Shown piece by piece: positions 31,695-50,295 of a stretch of DNA of 50,498 nucleotides (positions within the stretch are counted from its first letter, which is position 1; each line of letters begins with the position of its first letter). The position numbers and the translations under genes were made by a program. This DNA comes from Cyanobacteriota bacterium SRBZ.bins.94.201705 (GTDB lineage: Bacteria > Cyanobacteriota > Cyanobacteriia > Cyanobacteriales > Cyanobacteriaceae), in contig JAUQQP010000010.1 in NCBI GenBank assembly GCA_030549855.1, positions 1 through 50,498 of the forward strand, read 5' to 3'. The notes beneath the pieces are model-generated. The model did not search any database, was not told the DNA's origin, and saw only the letters and a program-made list of their open reading frames with translations.

Positions 31695-34600
31695 ATGAAT
31701 CCACTAAATCGAGCCCATCAACAGTTGTTAGATGAAGCCCCCGAACTGTTGCAAGAAATAGAAAATAAATTAATAGGGTTACAAGCCAATGACACAAGCC
31801 GGGTAGAAGAGTTACTACAGGCCATTCAATCTTTGAAACAAAAACTGGCCAATGGGGGTTTAATTCATTTTACCAGAGCGGTACACCGACTGGAAAACCT
31901 GTTGAAAGCCCTGTGTCATAATCATGTGACAATAGACACCTCCCTAGAGAGTTTGTTGTTGGAGGCGTTTGACTGTATAGCCATCCCTCTGAGGGAGGAC
32001 TTTAAGTGTGGTAAAATCCCCCCACCCTCTCAAACGGTAGACGGAAAAATAGAAGAAATCTGGCGGCAAATAGAGACTAGGTTAGCAGAGGGAAGAAACA
32101 ACAATGGTTCTCATTTTCAGGGGCAAGACTGGGACACAGACATAGTAGTAGAATTGTTTACGGGGGATGTGGCTCGAGTAATTGACAACCTGAGGGGATT
32201 AGTGGCGCAGGAAGAAGACAGTTATGCCAAAAGACAACAGTTACAACAATGGTTGGATAGTCTGGAAAGCATTGCCCAGGTGACAGAATTGCCAGGCTTC
32301 TCTCTGATTGTCTCTGTAGCAAAGGAAGCCCTAGAAAAACACCCCCATCAGGTTAATACTATTGCCTCCCTCCTAATAGAGGATTTAGAGAGAAGTCTAA
32401 TGGCAGTGTTAGCGGGAGACAGACAACAGGGAGGGGCGCCTTCTAGTGGTCTTTTGGCTTTGGGGGAATCTGAAACCCCCAAGGAGACACAAGTAGAGGC
32501 AACAGCTTATAGGACTAAAGGGGAGAGGAAGGTAGAAGAATTTTCTTATGTGTCAGACACGGTTAGCATAGATGAACCGATGTATGAATTGTTCATGGCG
32601 GAGGTGCCAGAATTACTGGATACCATTGAACATGGCTTGCTTTCCCTGAAAACGGAAAAGACTACTGCCCGTGTCAACGAAATCATGAGGGCAGCACATT
32701 CCCTCAAGGGAGGGGCCGCCAGTGTTGGCCTCCATGGTATAAAAGATTTGGCACACCGTCTAGAGGATTATATCAAGGCCCTTTTTAGTGAACAAGTAGT
32801 ATTTGACGACGAACTGGAATCCCTCTTCCTCTCTGCCTTTGATTGTCTCAAAAATGCTCTTTTGGAACAACAGTCTACCGGTAGATATTCTCATCGCTGG
32901 CAGGAAGAAGCAGAGGCCGTCTGGACACAACTGGAGGCCAAATTGGGTAGTATAGAAGACATTCCTTCCTTCATCCCTTCCTCCAGTGACTTGGGTGTGG
33001 ATATTATTAAATCCCTCTTTGAGGTGGATGTCCCTCAGATTATTCAACAACTACAAGAGCATCTACAAAACACCCCCACCTCCCAACTCCCTGCGGCTGT
33101 CTCCCCCCTTCTAGATGTCCTCATGGGCTTTGGTGAATTGGGCAATGAGAAGCAATTGAAGCAGATTGTCAATAGGACCAGGGAGGCTATTGCAAGTAAT
33201 ACTCAGGAGACGAGAGAAGCCATAAGCCACCTCCTAGAAGATTTGATAAGTCTGAGGGAGAAATACATAGGCGGAGAAACTGCAGCGGAAAAAACCCCTG
33301 ACTGGCAAGAGTTAATGGAAGAGGTAAACAACAGTGTGGACAAAATGGAGTTGGAAGATACAACGGAAGAAACAGGAGAAAGTCCCGACTTTTTGTCCCT
33401 CTTGGAGGATTCCCAACAAGAAGAGTTGCAAGCCCAGTCCTATCAATTTTTCCTAGAAGAAGCCCCAGAATTAATTGCCATTATTGACAGCAAATTAGAG
33501 AAAGTTTTCCAAGAAAGGAATATAAGTGACATCAACGAGGCGGCAAGGGCAGCCCATTCTCTCAAGGGAGGGGCAAGGACTGCCGGGTTGGAAGACTTGG
33601 CTACTATTGCCTTGAGGGTGGAAAAGAGTCTAAAAGCCCTTTTTAATGATAATATACCCTTAGACGAAAAAATGCAAGCCTACCTGCGGGAGCTCTACGG
33701 GCTACTGCGGCAGGCGGTTTTAGCAAGGCTGGAAAGGACAGAGTTTGACGAGAAAACGGCAGTAGAAATAGTTAATAGCAAGTGGGCGGAATTTGAGGGA
33801 GAATACGGGGAAGAAATAGCAAAAGCGGAGGAATACCTGCCTTCCTCCAGCGATTTGGGGGTAGATATAGCTTCCTCCTTGTTTGAAATTGATGTGCCCC
33901 AGGGGATTGCCACTCTCCAAACGGCCCTAGAAACGGAAGACGACGCAACCCTGATAAATACAGTCACCAGCCAACTGGAAGTATTCACCGGCTTCGGGGA
34001 AATGTTAGGCCTCCCGGGCTTTGTCTCTATATGTCAGACGGCACAAAAAGCTTTGCAACAATACCCCCAGAGGGTGAGAGAAATTACCTCGGCGTTGATA
34101 GAAAACCTGCAACAGGCACAAGCCCAAGTCCTAGCAGGCGATCGCACCAGGGGGGGTGAGGTGAGTGCCTCCCTACAAGCCCTCTTGTCTCCCCCCTCTA
34201 GCCCCTCTGTCGCCGAAAAACCAGTAGATACCAGTGATCCAGCCTATGGTTTCTTTGTAGAGGAGGCGCCGGAATTACTGCAAGTCATAGAAAGTGGCTT
34301 GCTTACTCTTCGGGAAGACAGAAGTACAGCTAAAATACACGAGATGATGCGCGCCGCCCACTCCCTCAAGGGGGGTGCAGCCAGTGTCGGTTTGGAAGCT
34401 ATCAAAACCATCGCCCACCAGTTGGAGGACATCTTTAAAGTCCTTTATAATCCGGATATACCCATAGACACCGACTTGGAAACCTGGCTGTTAGAGGGGT
34501 ATGACTGTCTGGCTAATGCCCTCAACACCCAAATAGAAACAGGACAATACAACCCCCAAGAGGCACTGGCTAGGGCAGAACAAATCTGGGCTAAAATCAA

Positions 34601-37600
34601 AACTAAATTGGGGCCTTATCTAGAAAGGGCAGACGACTACATCCCCTCCTCCAGCGATTTGGGCATAGACATGGTAAAATCCATGTTCGAGGTGGATGTG
34701 GCCCAAGAATTAGACCGTCTTAAGGCTGTTGTGGCTAACCCCACCGGCTTACCTCTGGCAGGAGAATTAAGGGCCACCCTGGAAGTCTTTGCCGGCTTCG
34801 GGGAAATGCTTAACCTCCCTGGCTTTGCCGAAATCGCCCGTCTGGGGTTGAAAGCTGTCGAACTACAACCAGATCAAGTTATCAACATAATAAACATAGT
34901 AATCAGGGATGTAGAAAGGGCAAGAGAGGCAGTACTAGCAGGCGATCGTCATCAGGGAGGCCAACCTAGTGAGGAATTAAAACGTCTAGCAGAAGGTAAA
35001 AGCCTGGTGGAAGCAGAAGAAGAAATCCCTGAAGCCGCTGGAGACGAAATCCTGGGCGAGGTTTTGGCTACCCCCGAGGAAATTTTTCCCCCCGTCTACA
35101 GGGAAACCCAAACTGTTGCCAATCCTCTGAGCGAAATCCATTTGTCGACAACAGATATACAAAGTCTAGAACAATTGGATCAAGGCATCCCAGAAGAGGA
35201 AGAAAACCTGCCCGACTTAGAACAGCTCCTTTCTGCCACCATAGAAGTGGATAAGGGGCAAACCATCCCCTCTATTAGTGAAATACTAGCACCCCCCCAA
35301 GAAGGCGAAAAAACAGGGGAAACTACTACCCCCCCACCACAGCAGGGAGAATTACAAGAAGAAGTGCCCTCTTTGGAAGAAGTTTTTGGGGATATATCTG
35401 AAATTGTCCAAGTGTCGGAAGAAACCCCCAGCGAAGAAGAAACCACCGCCGAAAGCAAACCCCCCACTCCTACCATCCCCGAAAGTCACAAGGAAGAAGT
35501 AATCATCCTCTCGGAGGCGGAAAGAGAAGCCTTGTTACGGGCAGAAGGAGTAGAAGAAACTGTTGAATCTATCACTAGAATCTATGAAAAACTACCCCCT
35601 GTAAAGGATATTAGCCAAATCTCCCCCAAAAAAGGCGATTCTGTCCCCAAAAAGGCTACCACAGACAAGACACAGGAAACAAAGGCCGCACCTGTTGCCC
35701 CTAAGACTAATTTAACCATACGGGTGGACCTGGAGCGCCTGGAGAGGATGAATAACCTCATTGGTGAATTGTCTATCACCCGTAATAGTTTATCCCTGCA
35801 AAACGAGAAACTACAAAGTGCCCTCAGGGAATTACTCTCCCGCTTTTCCCAATTCCAACAGATGGCCAATGCCCTCCGGTTATTATCCGATAAAATGTTA
35901 GTCTCCCCCTCTAGATTCACCTCCAAAAAGAGTCATCGTCTAGAAGAAACACTGAATATTTCTGGCGAGGAAGGAGAAGACACTAATCTCACCGCCGCCT
36001 TTGACGTGTTGGAAATGGATCGCTACGACGATCTTTACAGCGTAACTCAAGCCCTGCTGGAACAAATTATCCAGTTAGAAGAGGCGGTGGAAGACATTGC
36101 CCTATATGCCTCTCAATCCGGACAAACCGTAGAAAGTCAAAAACAAATGCTTAACCGCCTAAGGGATGAGTTGATGTGGGCGAGAATGCTTCCCCTGGGC
36201 GAAATCCTCAACCGCTTCCCCCGCGTCTTGCGAGATTTGTCTGTTAAATACAACAAAAAGGTCAATCTTAAACTCAGTGGCACTAATGTACTGGTAGATA
36301 AGGCAGCCCTAGAAAAATTATATGACCCCCTGGTGCACCTGATCCGCAATGCCTTTGACCATGGTATAGAAACCCCGGAAGTCCGTAAACAAAGAGGGAA
36401 GCCGGAAGTAGGTACTATTGAGGTAAGAGCATACCACCAAGGTAATCAGACTATTATTGAGGTAAGAGACGATGGGGGAGGGATTAATCTGGCCAAGGTA
36501 GGACAAAAGGCAGTAGAAAAAGGACTCCTTACACCTGAACAATTGGCGGTTATTAGCAAGGAAAACCTGCTAGACTTGATTTTTGAGCCGGGTTTTTCTA
36601 CCGCCTCTAGTGTAACTGAAATTTCTGGGCGGGGTGTGGGTTTGGATATTGTCCGTTCCCAACTGCGCTCTCTTAAGGGTACAATTGCTGTAGACTCGGA
36701 AGAAGGTCAAGGCACTACTTTCACCCTCCGACTACCCCTCACCCTCACCATCGACAAACTGTTAGTCTTATCCGCTGCTAATCTCTTATATGCAGTGCCT
36801 TCTGATAACATTTTTGAAATCCTGGTGCCAGAAAATCATCAACTAAAAGTCTCTGCTAACCAACGCTGGCTATACTATGAAAACCGCGTCATTCCCCTCT
36901 ACTCCCTCGCCGAGTTGTTGCACTACAACTGCTACTTGCCTCCCACTAACATCAGCCAGAATATAGAAATACTCCCCACTCCCCCAGAATGGAATAAACC
37001 GGTATTGTTAGTCCAGTTGGGGCAAGAATTGTTTGCTATCGAGGTTGATCACCTAGTAAGTGAACAAGAATTGGTCGTCAAACCCTTTGGCACTGCTATT
37101 ACTGCCCCCAGATATACTTACGGCTGTACTATACTCGGTGATGGCACTTTAATCCCCGTCATCAACCCCGTCATTCTCATCTCACACCAACTCCAACTCC
37201 ACCAGTCTACCCCTGTAATCCCCATTAGGAAAGAAAAAGAGGACACCCCCGTAGAATCCACCTCCCCTACCTACCGCAACGGCCATACTGCTACCCCTAC
37301 CACTGTTGCTAAGCCCTTCCAAGTTCAATCTATACTTGTAGTTGATGATAGTGCAGCCATGAGGCGGACTTTAGCCTTGTCTCTGGAAAAGGCTGGCTAT
37401 CGGGTAGTACAGGCTAAGGATGGCAAGGATGCCTTAGATCAACTTTTACAAGGCTTGAATGTGAATCTGATTATCTGTGACATTGAAATGCCTAACATGA
37501 ATGGTTTTGAATTCCTGAGTCAGAGGAGACGTCATCCCGAGTTGAGTAAAATCCCCGTAGCCATGTTAACTTCCCGCAGCAATGAGAAACACCGTCAGTT

Positions 37601-37694
37601 GGCAACCCATCTTGGTGCCAATGCTTACTTCACCAAACCCTATATTGAACAGAAATTCCTAGAGTCTATCCGTAACCTTCTGGCACAAAAGTAA
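31695..37694 (+). CDS. CheA-type hybrid histidine kinase with four Hpt units and a REC domain
   Basis: A 1999-residue chemotaxis-type kinase of the kind linked to type IV pilus motility or phototaxis in cyanobacteria. Hpt-like units: about 1-130 (decayed; QSLKQK replaces the histidine box), 292-415 (H335), 581-700 (H621), 850-975 (H889), the last three with AAHSLKGG. Each is followed by a second module (about 141-250, 423-527, 713-832, 981-1100), mostly starting PSSSDLG and ending LAGDR. Then come an acidic linker (1100-1335), dimerisation domain, HATPase (N1552, DDGGG 1592-1596, GRGVGLDIV), CheW-like domain, and receiver (D1884, D1929, K1981). No che or pil genes are adjacent. Confidence 0.93.
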   Translation: MNPLNRAHQQLLDEAPELLQEIENKLIGLQANDTSRVEELLQAIQSLKQKLANGGLIHFTRAVHRLENLLKALCHNHVTIDTSLESLLLEAFDCIAIPLREDFKCGKIPPPSQTVDGKIEEIWRQIETRLAEGRNNNGSHFQGQDWDTDIVVELFTGDVARVIDNLRGLVAQEEDSYAKRQQLQQWLDSLESIAQVTELPGFSLIVSVAKEALEKHPHQVNTIASLLIEDLERSLMAVLAGDRQQGGAPSSGLLALGESETPKETQVEATAYRTKGERKVEEFSYVSDTVSIDEPMYELFMAEVPELLDTIEHGLLSLKTEKTTARVNEIMRAAHSLKGGAASVGLHGIKDLAHRLEDYIKALFSEQVVFDDELESLFLSAFDCLKNALLEQQSTGRYSHRWQEEAEAVWTQLEAKLGSIEDIPSFIPSSSDLGVDIIKSLFEVDVPQIIQQLQEHLQNTPTSQLPAAVSPLLDVLMGFGELGNEKQLKQIVNRTREAIASNTQETREAISHLLEDLISLREKYIGGETAAEKTPDWQELMEEVNNSVDKMELEDTTEETGESPDFLSLLEDSQQEELQAQSYQFFLEEAPELIAIIDSKLEKVFQERNISDINEAARAAHSLKGGARTAGLEDLATIALRVEKSLKALFNDNIPLDEKMQAYLRELYGLLRQAVLARLERTEFDEKTAVEIVNSKWAEFEGEYGEEIAKAEEYLPSSSDLGVDIASSLFEIDVPQGIATLQTALETEDDATLINTVTSQLEVFTGFGEMLGLPGFVSICQTAQKALQQYPQRVREITSALIENLQQAQAQVLAGDRTRGGEVSASLQALLSPPSSPSVAEKPVDTSDPAYGFFVEEAPELLQVIESGLLTLREDRSTAKIHEMMRAAHSLKGGAASVGLEAIKTIAHQLEDIFKVLYNPDIPIDTDLETWLLEGYDCLANALNTQIETGQYNPQEALARAEQIWAKIKTKLGPYLERADDYIPSSSDLGIDMVKSMFEVDVAQELDRLKAVVANPTGLPLAGELRATLEVFAGFGEMLNLPGFAEIARLGLKAVELQPDQVINIINIVIRDVERAREAVLAGDRHQGGQPSEELKRLAEGKSLVEAEEEIPEAAGDEILGEVLATPEEIFPPVYRETQTVANPLSEIHLSTTDIQSLEQLDQGIPEEEENLPDLEQLLSATIEVDKGQTIPSISEILAPPQEGEKTGETTTPPPQQGELQEEVPSLEEVFGDISEIVQVSEETPSEEETTAESKPPTPTIPESHKEEVIILSEAEREALLRAEGVEETVESITRIYEKLPPVKDISQISPKKGDSVPKKATTDKTQETKAAPVAPKTNLTIRVDLERLERMNNLIGELSITRNSLSLQNEKLQSALRELLSRFSQFQQMANALRLLSDKMLVSPSRFTSKKSHRLEETLNISGEEGEDTNLTAAFDVLEMDRYDDLYSVTQALLEQIIQLEEAVEDIALYASQSGQTVESQKQMLNRLRDELMWARMLPLGEILNRFPRVLRDLSVKYNKKVNLKLSGTNVLVDKAALEKLYDPLVHLIRNAFDHGIETPEVRKQRGKPEVGTIEVRAYHQGNQTIIEVRDDGGGINLAKVGQKAVEKGLLTPEQLAVISKENLLDLIFEPGFSTASSVTEISGRGVGLDIVRSQLRSLKGTIAVDSEEGQGTTFTLRLPLTLTIDKLLVLSAANLLYAVPSDNIFEILVPENHQLKVSANQRWLYYENRVIPLYSLAELLHYNCYLPPTNISQNIEILPTPPEWNKPVLLVQLGQELFAIEVDHLVSEQELVVKPFGTAITAPRYTYGCTILGDGTLIPVINPVILISHQLQLHQSTPVIPIRKEKEDTPVESTSPTYRNGHTATPTTVAKPFQVQSILVVDDSAAMRRTLALSLEKAGYRVVQAKDGKDALDQLLQGLNVNLIICDIEMPNMNGFEFLSQRRRHPELSKIPVAMLTSRSNEKHRQLATHLGANAYFTKPYIEQKFLESIRNLLAQK
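34138..34145. other. HIP1 octamer GCGATCGC
   Basis: The only perfect HIP1 palindrome I noticed by eye in the window, inside the CheA gene at an LAGDR repeat. Many cyanobacteria have HIP1 at high density, so its near absence is a lineage character rather than a feature of this gene. Confidence 0.6.
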
Positions 37695-48124: not shown

Positions 48125-48688
48125 TTAAGGGGAATAGATAGATTTCCAGGCACGGACGGTGGCACTGCCGATATAAAAATCAGTGGTGCTGCCATCAGCC
48201 CATACCAGGCGCACTAATAGTTTCTGGTCAGGGAGACTAATCAAAGCCCGTGCCAACTCGTCGCTGACTACTCCCCCCTCGTACTCATAAATCTTACCGC
48301 CGATGGCAAAAAGAATTTTTTCGGGGCTTTTCCTTTTCCGGATATACTTGTATACTGGTTCTTGATCCCAATAGACTTCTTCTTGCCATTGGTTATCCCG
48401 TTTAACTTTACGGGTGCGTTGTACCCGACGATAGTAGTCTAACTGCCTTTCCGTCCAGAAGTAGCTGAGACGGACACCCTGTTTTGACCAACTGCTGACT
48501 ATAGCGTAGCCTTCACCAAAGTCCTTGTCGTAGACTATTTTACCATCAAAGGGGTCTTCTACTACTTTTGACCAGGGCACAGGGGAATCCTGGTGGACGG
48601 GGGAGGGGGGTATAGTAGCGTTAGCGGGGCTAGTGGTGGCCAACAGGAAAAGGCCAAAAACAGAGGCAAGGCCGGTATTGACTTTCAT
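48125..48688 (-). CDS. Exported protein of unknown function
   Basis: A 187-residue precursor with a clear signal peptide (residues 1-24, ending SPANA). The mature part is rich in aromatic and charged residues: DKDFGEGYAIVSSWSKQGV, then FWTERQLDYYRRVQRTRKVK, EEVYWDQEPVYKYIRKRKSP, LFAIGGKIYEYEGGVV and LVRLVWADGSTTDFYIGSATV. I recognise no catalytic motif. Its ATG is three bases after the stop of the nuclease gene, so the two are almost certainly co-transcribed and probably translationally coupled. Link in function is inference. Confidence 0.75.
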   Translation of the reverse strand: MKVNTGLASVFGLFLLATTSPANATIPPSPVHQDSPVPWSKVVEDPFDGKIVYDKDFGEGYAIVSSWSKQGVRLSYFWTERQLDYYRRVQRTRKVKRDNQWQEEVYWDQEPVYKYIRKRKSPEKILFAIGGKIYEYEGGVVSDELARALISLPDQKLLVRLVWADGSTTDFYIGSATVRAWKSIYSP

Positions 48689-48691
48689 AGT

Positions 48692-50221
48692 CTATTTGGG
48701 GGATACTATGGTGTAGACGTTAAAACCGCCACGGTTTCCACAAAGGTCGTTTTCTAAGACGACGGCGTCGGCATGTTTAATTGTTCCAGTGGCATTGTAG
48801 ATGAAACAGATAAGGGTTTTTAGATAGGGATATTCCCGATAGCTTTCAAAGTCTTCGGCCAATTGACGGACTATTCCCTCCCTTTTTATATTTCCCCTAG
48901 GGTATTTAATTTCTATAAGGATACCATGGGAAGGGATAGCGAAGTCGACACGACTATTTTTGCCAGCATGATTGGGCACATCCACTTCCCTTCTTACATC
49001 ATCGAAAAATAATGCCAGCAAGACATGAAATAATCGTTGGACATCAGCCTCATTTTGGAGGGAAAAATTATAATCCCTTTCAAACACCTCGGCAATAGAC
49101 GGAAACTTTCTACAGAGAGTCTCTATAGTTTCAAAAGCTTCTGTTTCATTGAGTGTTGTCTGACGTAGGGGTTTAATTTCCTTTTTGATAACTCCCTGTA
49201 GGCCTTCTTGTATCCGGGTGGGAATAGAGTTTTCTATGGCATTTATATGGGATAAAAATTCTTGTGTGGATTGCTGAATATTGCTGTGGATGATTTCTTG
49301 TAATTGCTGTTGTAATTGCTGTTGTAACTGAGTCGGGAGGGAGTTTTGCAAAGCCTCAAGGGAAGGCACAAATTGGTTGGATACTATTTCCTTTAATTGG
49401 AGTTGTAGATGGGAGGGAAGGGAATTTTGGAAAGCATCGAGGCGAGATGATAATTGTTGACACAACTGATGATTAGTATTTTGGATAACCTCTTCTAGTG
49501 TTGGCTGTAACTCAGCGGGGATAGATTGTTGTAGCAGATTTAGGCTGGAATGTAACTGATAAACTGACTGTTGAATGCTAGAGATAATTGTTGTTAATTG
49601 CGCGATACTTTCAGACAGATTTTGTTGAATATTAGAGATGGAATTTTCTGAGGAATTCAGGGAGGATAACAACTGGTTTACCGGCGGTTGAATATTAGTG
49701 TTAAACTCCTCAATTTTACGAGAGAGGTTTTCAATATCCTTTTTTATGGTGGTATTGATAAACTCTTCCAGGCCTCCAATTCTTTGTAGAAACTGAACCT
49801 CTTGCCTTATAATAGTGTTGATGCCCTCTTCTAAGCCTTCAAGTTTGGAAAACTCGGACTGTAGCTGACTGTGGATGGCGTTTTGGAATTGTCGGGAGGC
49901 ATAGGTTAAATTTTGTAGGTTATCTTGGATGGTAGTCAGGGAGGGGCTAACGTTGTCCCTAATATTTGCCTCTAGGGGGGATAAGAGTGGGGGCAGTTGT
50001 CTGTTTATTTCTTCCAATTCTGCTATTGACTGGGAGACTTGGGAGACGGAATAGGAGAGGATTTGATGACGACGGCGGAGGGAATAATATCCCCCAGCCA
50101 TTCCTGCTGTCAAGCCTCCTAGGGCGACACTGTTATTCCGAATGCCTACTCCCACAAATCCACTAACCAAACCGGCAACCAGGAAAACCTCTCCCAGCCA
50201 GGAGAATACTGCCTGTTTCAT
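48692..50221 (-). CDS. Membrane-anchored coiled-coil protein with DpnII/MboI-like nuclease domain
   Basis: A 509-residue protein. Two hydrophobic segments (about 5-27 and 30-47) are followed by long coiled coil (about 60-365) with four copies of a LxxxQNSLPxxLQxxLxEI repeat (near 227, 261, 288 and 326). The C-terminal domain (about 390-505) has the PD-(D/E)XK core D426 with E437-x-K439 (RVDFAIPSHGILIEIKY), then LAEDFESYREYPYLKTLICF, as in DpnII/MboI-type restriction endonuclease-like domains. ATG at 50221 has AGGAGG just upstream. There is no methyltransferase beside it. An anti-invader role is possible, but not shown. Confidence 0.82.
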   Translation of the reverse strand: MKQAVFSWLGEVFLVAGLVSGFVGVGIRNNSVALGGLTAGMAGGYYSLRRRHQILSYSVSQVSQSIAELEEINRQLPPLLSPLEANIRDNVSPSLTTIQDNLQNLTYASRQFQNAIHSQLQSEFSKLEGLEEGINTIIRQEVQFLQRIGGLEEFINTTIKKDIENLSRKIEEFNTNIQPPVNQLLSSLNSSENSISNIQQNLSESIAQLTTIISSIQQSVYQLHSSLNLLQQSIPAELQPTLEEVIQNTNHQLCQQLSSRLDAFQNSLPSHLQLQLKEIVSNQFVPSLEALQNSLPTQLQQQLQQQLQEIIHSNIQQSTQEFLSHINAIENSIPTRIQEGLQGVIKKEIKPLRQTTLNETEAFETIETLCRKFPSIAEVFERDYNFSLQNEADVQRLFHVLLALFFDDVRREVDVPNHAGKNSRVDFAIPSHGILIEIKYPRGNIKREGIVRQLAEDFESYREYPYLKTLICFIYNATGTIKHADAVVLENDLCGNRGGFNVYTIVSPK

Positions 50222-50295
50222 GAACCTCCTGTTTGTCAGCCATCCCCCCATTATAACATATCATGCTCTCCCTTCTACTATCAGGGAGGCACATT

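What the first reader, a model, noticed from the sequence alone, without database searches (positions are those of the whole stretch)
48125..50221. Two-gene unit: membrane-anchored coiled-coil DpnII/MboI-like nuclease plus exported protein
The sequence shows an N-terminal double membrane segment, about 300 residues of coiled coil with four internal QNSLPxxLQ-type repeats, and a C-terminal PD-(D/E)XK core (RVDF...IEIKY) resembling DpnII/MboI restriction-like domains. The exported protein starts three bases after its stop. Solitary membrane-tethered restriction-like nucleases with no methylase are not a standard restriction-modification layout. A role in invader sensing at the membrane, DNA uptake control or chromosome tethering is conceivable. 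The functional link to the exported partner is inference.
Basis: partly seen in the sequence, partly recalled or inferred. Interest (0 to 1): 0.72.

Follow-up and report, generated by a model that had tools for sequence, protein, structure and literature searches.

The report
Membrane-tethered DNA-cutting enzyme in a cyanobacterium
A cyanobacterial gene encodes a DNA-cutting domain that seems to be held at the inner membrane on a long helical stalk, most likely a guard against incoming phage or plasmid DNA; a sister gene in the same genome carries the same membrane anchor on a different DNA-cutting domain.

Summary
The sequence observation holds. Window 48692-50221(-) encodes 509 residues: an N-terminal membrane segment (probably a hairpin), about 300 helical residues with four QNSLPxxLQ repeats, and a PD-(D/E)XK domain of Pfam PF18742 (E 6e-33) with D426/E437/K439 intact. 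The Pfam name misleads: the only clear relative of solved structure is EcbAgaN, the DNA-degrading effector of the BPAN Argonaute defence system, and 13 of 79 relative loci scanned have an Argonaute neighbour. A restriction-modification reading has little support.

The pair with the exported gene is adjacency, not a conserved unit: of 11 genomes (of 60 searched) with the exported gene, only this one and its congener have the anchored nuclease; 8 have no nuclease match.

The new facts concern the anchor. It recurs in the congener, in a cyanobacterium of another order on a shorter PF18742 protein, and in this genome on a PDDEXK_9 nuclease with homologous upstream DNA. I read it as a membrane-tethered DNase guarding DNA entry, laid out like SNIPE and ShdA but built from different parts. 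Defence function is inferred; no phenotype, defence-island context or trigger is shown. New variant of a known kind.

The parts
48692..50221 (-). Gene of the membrane-tethered nuclease (509 aa; alternative start ATG at 50251 gives 519 aa)
   Evidence: orthologue at 68% identity in the congener G001
50078..50215 (-). Membrane anchor, residues 3-48: strong hydrophobic segment 3-29 plus Gly-rich segment 31-48, followed by RRR
   Evidence: hydropathy; shared with the own-genome paralogue (78% over residues 3-53) and with L163 of another order (score 75; 0 of 5000 shuffles, and 0 of 983 hydrophobic control segments, reach it)
49172..50065 (-). Helical stalk, residues 53-350, hydrophobic period 3.59 in 53-233
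49208..49531 (-). Four QNSLPxxLQ-type repeats starting at residues 231, 265, 292, 330
   Evidence: looser counterparts in G001
48695..49129 (-). PD-(D/E)XK nuclease domain, PF18742, residues 365-509; active site D426, E437, K439 (and conserved E391, D393, Q395)
48125..48688 (-). Adjacent gene of a predicted exported protein, 187 aa, no Pfam family; probably co-transcribed, but not a conserved partner

Best explanation
P0001 is a membrane-tethered, probably sequence-nonspecific DNase that guards against incoming DNA (phage or plasmid). [quoted passage not shown] The roughly 300-residue helical stalk holds the nuclease off the membrane and probably oligomerises it (inferred). The C-terminal bAgaN-type PD-(D/E)XK domain cuts DNA (inferred from fold and intact active site). 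Tethering would serve two ends, as reported for SNIPE and proposed for ShdA: it keeps a toxic nuclease off the nucleoid and places it where foreign DNA enters. The anchor is a module that has been re-used on another nuclease, so what matters is 'nuclease at the membrane', not one cutting specificity. The trigger is unknown.
For: Shown here: PF18742 domain far over cut-off, confident fold model, D/E/K the same in 59 of 59 rows. The only clear solved relative by sequence is EcbAgaN (single-sequence E 7.6e-9; profile E 7.7e-13 and 9.3e-12), whose BPAN system degrades DNA collaterally (PMC10620215, abstract and passages). Argonaute neighbours at 13 of 79 relative loci (Piwi in 13 of 140 neighbours of 77 loci); no background rate was measured. 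Foldseek's top PDB row is the Shedu defence nuclease SduA (E 1.7e-3), then EcoO109I and Can2; no row is under 0.001. Orthologue with pN/pS 0.28 in the nuclease domain and 0.35 in the anchor between two species. Anchor re-used in the same genome on a PDDEXK_9 nuclease with about 104 bp of homologous upstream DNA, and in another order on a PF18742 protein. The layout matches two experimental systems: SNIPE, toxic without its membrane segment unless the nuclease is dead (PMC13190303, passages), and ShdA, which could not be cloned without its anchor (PMC10270631, passages). Patchy spread of PF18742 (13 of 291 genomes of the order; 14 of 386 of the phylum, 12 over the cut-off) suits a defence gene.
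Against: No activity or phenotype is shown. The locus does not look like a defence island: uvrC, tldD-like and nadK on one side in the window, lipB and infB on the other side in G001. The window gene stands 247-277 bp from the contig end, so its upstream neighbour is unseen here. The full anchor-stalk-PF18742 form was seen in two species only. The nuclease domain sits on a long branch (2.6 changes per column; placement 82/21, unreliable), and the window row alone departs from two positions that are the same in the other 58 rows (A392 for Tyr, R396 for Asp), so its activity may differ. The full-length model is poor (pLDDT 58). The protein had no match in 50,697 phage records, although 15 viral contigs encode relatives of the nuclease domain. 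The PADLOC models matched cover the nuclease and part of the stalk, not the anchor.
Confidence: 0.5

Rival explanations
1. An RmuC-like housekeeping nuclease: tethered to the membrane, it trims recombination intermediates or anchors the chromosome, with no role against invaders.
For: Same layout as E. coli RmuC: N-terminal membrane helix, coiled coil, PD-(D/E)XK domain (PMC1189080, passages). The genome has no RmuC match, so the slot is free. The neighbours scanned are housekeeping genes including uvrC. Purifying selection in two species.
Against: Rare: the anchor is in 2 of 291 genomes of the order apart from one AcrB-family chance match. No PF02646 match for P0001 at E up to 1. Swapping to a different nuclease family in one genome suits a fast-evolving conflict gene better. 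RmuC-type ShdA itself is a defence protein.
Confidence: 0.2
2. Control of natural DNA uptake: the nuclease processes or degrades DNA entering through the competence machinery.
For: Membrane position and DNase fold; ShdA lowers transformation efficiency.
Against: None of the neighbours scanned is a competence gene; the domain is in only 13 of 291 genomes of the order, while competence genes are, as I recall, far commoner (not searched here). Hard to tell from the main reading without experiment.
Confidence: 0.1
3. An effector acting in trans for the Argonaute encoded elsewhere in the genome (contig C41), a membrane-bound BPAN.
For: The nuclease is of bAgaN type, and the genome has a PAZ+Piwi protein (L147:61-2193) running towards its contig end.
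Against: The congener G001 (96% complete) has the nuclease but no Piwi match. At the 13 loci with an Argonaute neighbour it is a nearest neighbour of the nuclease gene. No sequence shared by the two contig ends was found. EcbAgaN has its own N-terminal domain where P0001 has anchor and stalk.
Confidence: 0.06
4. A true two-gene system in which the exported protein regulates, senses for or is immunity to the nuclease.
For: Adjacency and three-base spacing kept in G001.
Against: 8 of 11 genomes with the exported gene have no nuclease match, and the two such loci read show unrelated neighbours. No exported relative was found in the stretches held around the paralogue and L163 or in the 95 relative loci. 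The exported protein is more constrained than the nuclease (pN/pS 0.14 against 0.34), as for an independent gene.
Confidence: 0.08
5. A solitary type II restriction enzyme of the DpnII/MboI kind that lost its methylase.
For: The Pfam name; distant fold similarity to BglII and BamHI (Z 9.2 and 8.7, the best rows) and EcoO109I.
Against: The only clear solved relative by sequence is a collateral DNase; no methylase among the genes scanned beside it; that restriction enzymes are not normally membrane-anchored is recalled, not searched.
Confidence: 0.03

Closest known systems
bAgaN / EcbAgaN, nuclease of the BPAN long-B Argonaute system (PMC10620215; PDB 23wq)
   Same: Homologous nuclease domain by sequence (E 7.6e-9 single sequence); D-ExK active site; C-terminal position behind another N-terminal part.
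   Different: P0001 has a membrane anchor and long stalk instead of bAgaN's N-terminal domain, and no Argonaute gene beside it where the surroundings can be read (G001).
SNIPE (PD-lambda-1; PMC13190303)
   Same: Membrane segment, elongated middle region, C-terminal nuclease on the cytoplasmic side (the side is shown for SNIPE, inferred here).
   Different: SNIPE's nuclease is GIY-YIG and its middle region DUF4041; neither is among P0001's Pfam matches at E up to 1. Works-like, not a member.
ShdA of Shield, and RmuC (PMC10270631, PMC1189080)
   Same: Membrane anchor, long helical part, PD-(D/E)XK nuclease.
   Different: Nuclease is the RmuC family (PF02646), not among P0001's Pfam matches; Shield is reported only in Pseudomonas.
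PF18742 proteins with other N-terminal parts (zinc-ribbon DUF2321, a 'KWxRDT' type by eye, a 400-residue cyanobacterial type)
   Same: Same nuclease domain; found in bacteria, archaea and conjugative plasmids.
   Different: In 95 loci surveyed none has a 19-residue stretch over 1.6 in the first 80 residues; 5 of the 95 lack most of the N-terminal part, so 90 inform.
Own-genome paralogue, anchor plus PDDEXK_9 (PF08011), L022:6859-7656(-)
   Same: Same anchor and part of the stalk, with homologous upstream DNA.
   Different: Nuclease replaced by another PD-(D/E)XK family; stalk shortened by about 93 codons.

Membership tests
PF18742 (REase_DpnII-MboI) | Profile score over the curated cut-off | tested here: met
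   113.9 bits against 27
PF18742 (REase_DpnII-MboI) | PD-(D/E)XK active site D...ExK | tested here: met
   D426, E437, K439 the same in 59 of 59 rows of A2, window row included
Type II restriction-modification (DpnII/MboI) | Cognate DNA methylase beside the nuclease | tested here: not met
   Neighbours scanned: uvrC, tldD-like, nadK, DUF4336 in the window; lipB, infB in G001. The window's upstream neighbour lies beyond the contig end; in G001 about 1.5 kb without an ORF of 80 aa or more on that strand precedes lipB.
Type II restriction-modification (DpnII/MboI) | Sequence-specific cleavage | not testable with these tools
   needs enzyme assay
BPAN (long-B Argonaute plus bAgaN) | Nuclease homologous to bAgaN | tested here: met
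   EcbAgaN E 7.6e-9
BPAN (long-B Argonaute plus bAgaN) | Argonaute gene in the same operon | tested here: not met
   G001 has the nuclease and no Piwi match; upstream of it lie a gap and lipB. In the own genome the only Piwi match is on another contig; the window's own upstream side is unread.
RmuC / ShdA (Shield) | RmuC domain PF02646 | tested here: not met
   Not among the 22 P0001 Pfam matches at E up to 1; no PF02646 match in the own genome
RmuC / ShdA (Shield) | N-terminal membrane segment plus long helical region plus C-terminal nuclease | tested here: met
   hydropathy and prediction only
SNIPE | DUF4041 and GIY-YIG domains | tested here: not met
   Neither among the 22 P0001 Pfam matches at E up to 1
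SNIPE | Membrane anchor with cytoplasmic nuclease | tested here: inconclusive
   Hydropathy supports an anchor; topology is inferred only
Anti-phage defence gene (any) | Protection against phage or plasmid | not testable with these tools
   no phenotype data

The most novel reading that the evidence does not exclude
Cyanobacteria carry a mobile membrane-anchor cassette (a hairpin with a VGVGIxxNxxAxGG-like core, with or without a helical stalk) that has been put onto at least two PD-(D/E)XK families to make entry-guard nucleases: a third independent build of the 'nuclease tethered at the membrane' principle beside SNIPE (GIY-YIG) and ShdA (RmuC), here with bAgaN-type and PDDEXK_9 effectors.
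Probability: 0.4. Interest if true: 0.72.

Novelty: new variant of a known kind. Interest (0 to 1): 0.52.

Why it matters
If true, membrane tethering of an otherwise toxic DNase is a general, repeatedly invented way to tell incoming from own DNA, and cyanobacteria have their own version. It also gives an Argonaute-type collateral nuclease a second mode of control, place instead of guide RNA. The natural domain swap in one genome (same anchor, two nucleases) makes a clean test: does the anchor alone set the function, whatever the nuclease?

Tried and rejected
Exported partner as part of the system: tested by its spread and dropped as a conserved unit; P0002 had no Pfam match over its cut-off (one chance row, E 0.36), no PADLOC or NCBIfam match, and its family no PDB match at E up to 5.

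Argonaute joined across contig ends (C41 pAgo upstream of the nuclease): tested by comparing the ends; no overlap found, and the congener has no Piwi match. Left at low weight.

Weak Pfam, PADLOC and PDB matches of the stalk (Baculo_PEP_C, ATG17, Apolipoprotein, ZorA, JetC, LmuB, SecA) taken as helix-composition matches, not kinship; the Pfam rows are below their curated cut-offs.

Anchor match in G043: an AcrB-family pump, dropped as chance.

Tree placement of the nuclease: it falls next to Argonaute-associated nucleases, but on a long branch with 82/21 support; not used as evidence. The L163 domain is also a long branch, so whether the two anchored nucleases share one origin is open. Alignment A2 holds the window row and 58 of the 95 surveyed loci; of the 37 left out, L121 had a stop in the stretch and the others were left out by my own choice, for size, shortness or redundancy.

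Structure search: the rows have middling Z (best 9.2), which by the tool's own note may mean only a shared arrangement; DpnII and MboI did not appear among the rows shown, nor did EcbAgaN. Matches against viral predicted structures were weak and generic. The full-length model was too poor to search.

Neighbour scan: 79 of the 80 genome loci gave neighbours (L048 did not); 148 nearest neighbours, of which 140 (from 77 loci) were scanned. Left out: 2 over 1,200 bp away, 4 over 1,100 aa, 2 more for the size limit. Only the 25 commonest of 134 families are printed, so rarer families, methylases included, may be hidden; two Type I specificity and one Type ISP neighbour are among those printed. The 80 loci are the best of 216 and so not a random sample. 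The Argonaute profile was built from three of the 13 neighbours and run on all 278 neighbours of the 79 loci. No background control was run.

A script read a gapped copy of P0001; its window repeat and period figures are wrong and were redone. Its G001 and Argonaute-neighbour figures stand.

Literature: 'AgaN' with two further terms, 'DpnII-MboI', a six-term conflict-system search and 'PF18742' found 0 papers; some searches gave the precedents cited; two searches listed nothing nearer than SNIPE (107 listed 15 of 242). I found no report of a membrane-anchored PF18742 protein in these ten searches; most subscription papers are not in the library.
Full report
What is there. The window (whole contig C9 of a 2.87 Mb genome in 51 contigs) ends with two genes on the minus strand: 48692-50221 (509 aa, P0001) and, three bases on, 48125-48688 (187 aa, P0002). 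The neighbours scanned are uvrC, a TldD-like protease gene, nadK and a DUF4336 gene.

Anatomy of P0001. Residues 3-29 are strongly hydrophobic; 31-48 are Gly-rich and weakly so, then RRR. Residues 53-350 are predicted helical but at low confidence (pLDDT 58 for the whole), with a clear hydrophobic period of 3.59 in 53-233 (0 of 500 shuffles) rather than 3.5. Four QNSLPxxLQ-type repeats start at 231, 265, 292 and 330; none of 20,000 shuffles has more than one. Residues 365-509 are PF18742 (6.3e-33). The AlphaFold2 model of this domain (pLDDT 87.8, 59 sequences) has the expected order of strands and helices, and D426, E437 and K439 are the same in 59 of 59 rows; the window row alone departs at two other positions, A392 and R396, where the other 58 have Tyr and Asp.

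What the nuclease is. PF18742 is named after DpnII-MboI, but the evidence points elsewhere. By sequence the only clear solved relative is EcbAgaN (7.6e-9 from P0001 alone; by profile). PADLOC's three best models are Argonaute-associated 'Helical-REase'. Piwi proteins make up 13 of 140 nearest neighbours scanned around 77 relative loci, and a second profile search over 278 neighbours of 79 loci again gives 13 loci. EcbAgaN cleaves ssDNA and dsDNA but not RNA, and its system degrades genomic DNA after sensing a plasmid (PMC10620215: abstract and passages seen). Foldseek's first PDB row is the defence nuclease SduA at E 1.7e-3; below it come EcoO109I and Can2, and no row is under 0.001; VIA-align gives BglII Z 9.2 and BamHI 8.7, with Card1 and Can2 at about 7. 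These fold rows show the superfamily, not function. The domain is widespread: 216 confirmed relatives in one genome scan, of which the best 80 were kept, 15 in viral contigs, and 210 of 72,556 plasmid records, 160 of them predicted conjugative. In cyanobacteria it is patchy: 13 of 291 genomes of the order, 14 of 386 of the phylum, 12 of them over the cut-off (the two samples overlap).

What is unusual is the front half. In 95 relative loci (80 genome, 15 viral) no protein has a 19-residue stretch over 1.6 in hydropathy in its first 80 residues (highest 1.55); six have such a stretch further in, at residues 183-236, all six with an Argonaute neighbour. Starts were set mechanically, and five of the 95 lack most of the N-terminal part. 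Searching the first 72 residues in 291 genomes of the order gave only the own genome, its congener G001, and one AcrB-family chance match.

The anchor recurs in three places. First, G001 has a 68% identical orthologue beside the same uvrC and exported gene; pN/pS is 0.28 in the nuclease domain and 0.35 in the anchor, against 0.10 for uvrC, so both parts are under purifying selection but change faster than a housekeeping gene. Second, the own genome has a paralogue on C11 (L022:6859-7656, minus): residues 1-53 and about 146-220 of P0001 followed by PF08011 (PDDEXK_9, 1.1e-16), a different PD-(D/E)XK family. DNA similarity runs from about 104 bp upstream of the start codon, with an internal jump of about 93 codons: a duplication followed by replacement of the nuclease. 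PF08011 is otherwise seen in this genome as a short 127-aa gene (C10) and a copy with stops (C34), and in none of the 14 other genomes of the family. Third, in another order of the class, G586 (L163) has a 247-aa PF18742 protein (1.2e-26) whose residues 25-67 align with the anchor without gaps; score 75, against a maximum of 58 in 5,000 shuffles and 64 in 983 hydrophobic control segments. I found it by reading hydropathy over 24 loci, so it was picked after the fact. It has almost no stalk, and no exported relative lies in the 15 kb around it. The nuclease tree cannot say whether the two anchored PF18742 proteins share one origin, as both are long branches.

The exported gene. P0002 relatives occur in 11 of 60 genomes including the own one. 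Two of the 11 (G000, G001) have the anchored nuclease. One (G055, a weak match) has an unanchored PF18742 protein on another contig. The other eight have no P0001 match at E up to 1e-5. In two of those eight, read in detail, it lies beside unrelated genes, and uvrC was not found within the 14-20 kb stretches fetched for four. It is a conserved family (mean column identity 66% over nine rows) without a Pfam name. The pairing in this genus probably means co-transcription without a shared function.

Mechanism. Shown: architecture by sequence, intact active site, selection, modular re-use of the anchor. Inferred: DNase activity, inner-membrane place with the nuclease in the cytoplasm, stalk as spacer or oligomeriser, and a role against incoming DNA. 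Two experimental systems make the inference reasonable. [quoted passage not shown] PMC9519451 had noted a membrane-anchored protein with a DUF4041 coiled coil and a C-terminal DNA-cleavage domain, passages). ShdA is membrane-bound, has DNase activity in vitro, lowers transformation, and could not be cloned without its anchor (PMC10270631: passages seen; its TM helix and long coiled coil are described in PMC11090510, passages). P0001 shares neither nuclease family with them, so it works like them at most and is not a member. A review groups membrane localisation as one way to set nuclease specificity (PMC12904381: passages seen).

Against the reading: no defence genes among the neighbours scanned, no phenotype, only two species seen with the full form, a divergent nuclease, and an unread upstream side at the contig end. 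A housekeeping RmuC-like role is the main rival; the own genome has no RmuC match. Verdict: real, not restriction-modification on present evidence, probably a membrane-tethered defence nuclease; a new variant of a known kind.

Noticed in passing
L022:6859-7656(-) (G000 contig C11): Chimeric paralogue: the same membrane anchor and part of the stalk fused to a PDDEXK_9 nuclease, with homologous upstream DNA.
   Followed up: yes
L163:1144-1887(+) (G586, another order): 247-aa protein with a similar hairpin anchor almost directly on a PF18742 nuclease, with a bestrophin-type channel gene nearby.
   Followed up: partly
L147:61-2193(-) (G000 contig C41): PAZ+Piwi Argonaute of 710 aa ending 60 bp from its contig end, with a hisB-like gene (by eye) nearby; the congener G001 has no Piwi match.
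   Followed up: partly
L046:1474-3051(-) (G010): Protein with a QueC-like N-terminal part (by eye) and a PF18742 match just over the cut-off; may be another conflict-type fusion.
   Followed up: no
L144 (G000 contig C34), L143:1420-1803(+) (contig C10): A PDDEXK_9 copy with stops and a short intact one; no PF08011 match in the 14 other genomes of the family searched.
   Followed up: partly
Plasmid records: PF18742-type genes sit on many plasmids, mostly enterobacterial and predicted conjugative; the rows shown are annotated mostly as hypothetical, some as malate dehydrogenase.
   Followed up: no
L028:8233-8817(+), L029:6913-7479(+), L030:9700-10224(+): A conserved family of predicted exported proteins of cyanobacteria (about 190 aa) without a Pfam name, in varied gene contexts.
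   Followed up: partly
window 31695-37694(+): 1999-aa CheA-type histidine kinase with several Hpt domains, a CheW domain and a receiver domain.
   Followed up: no
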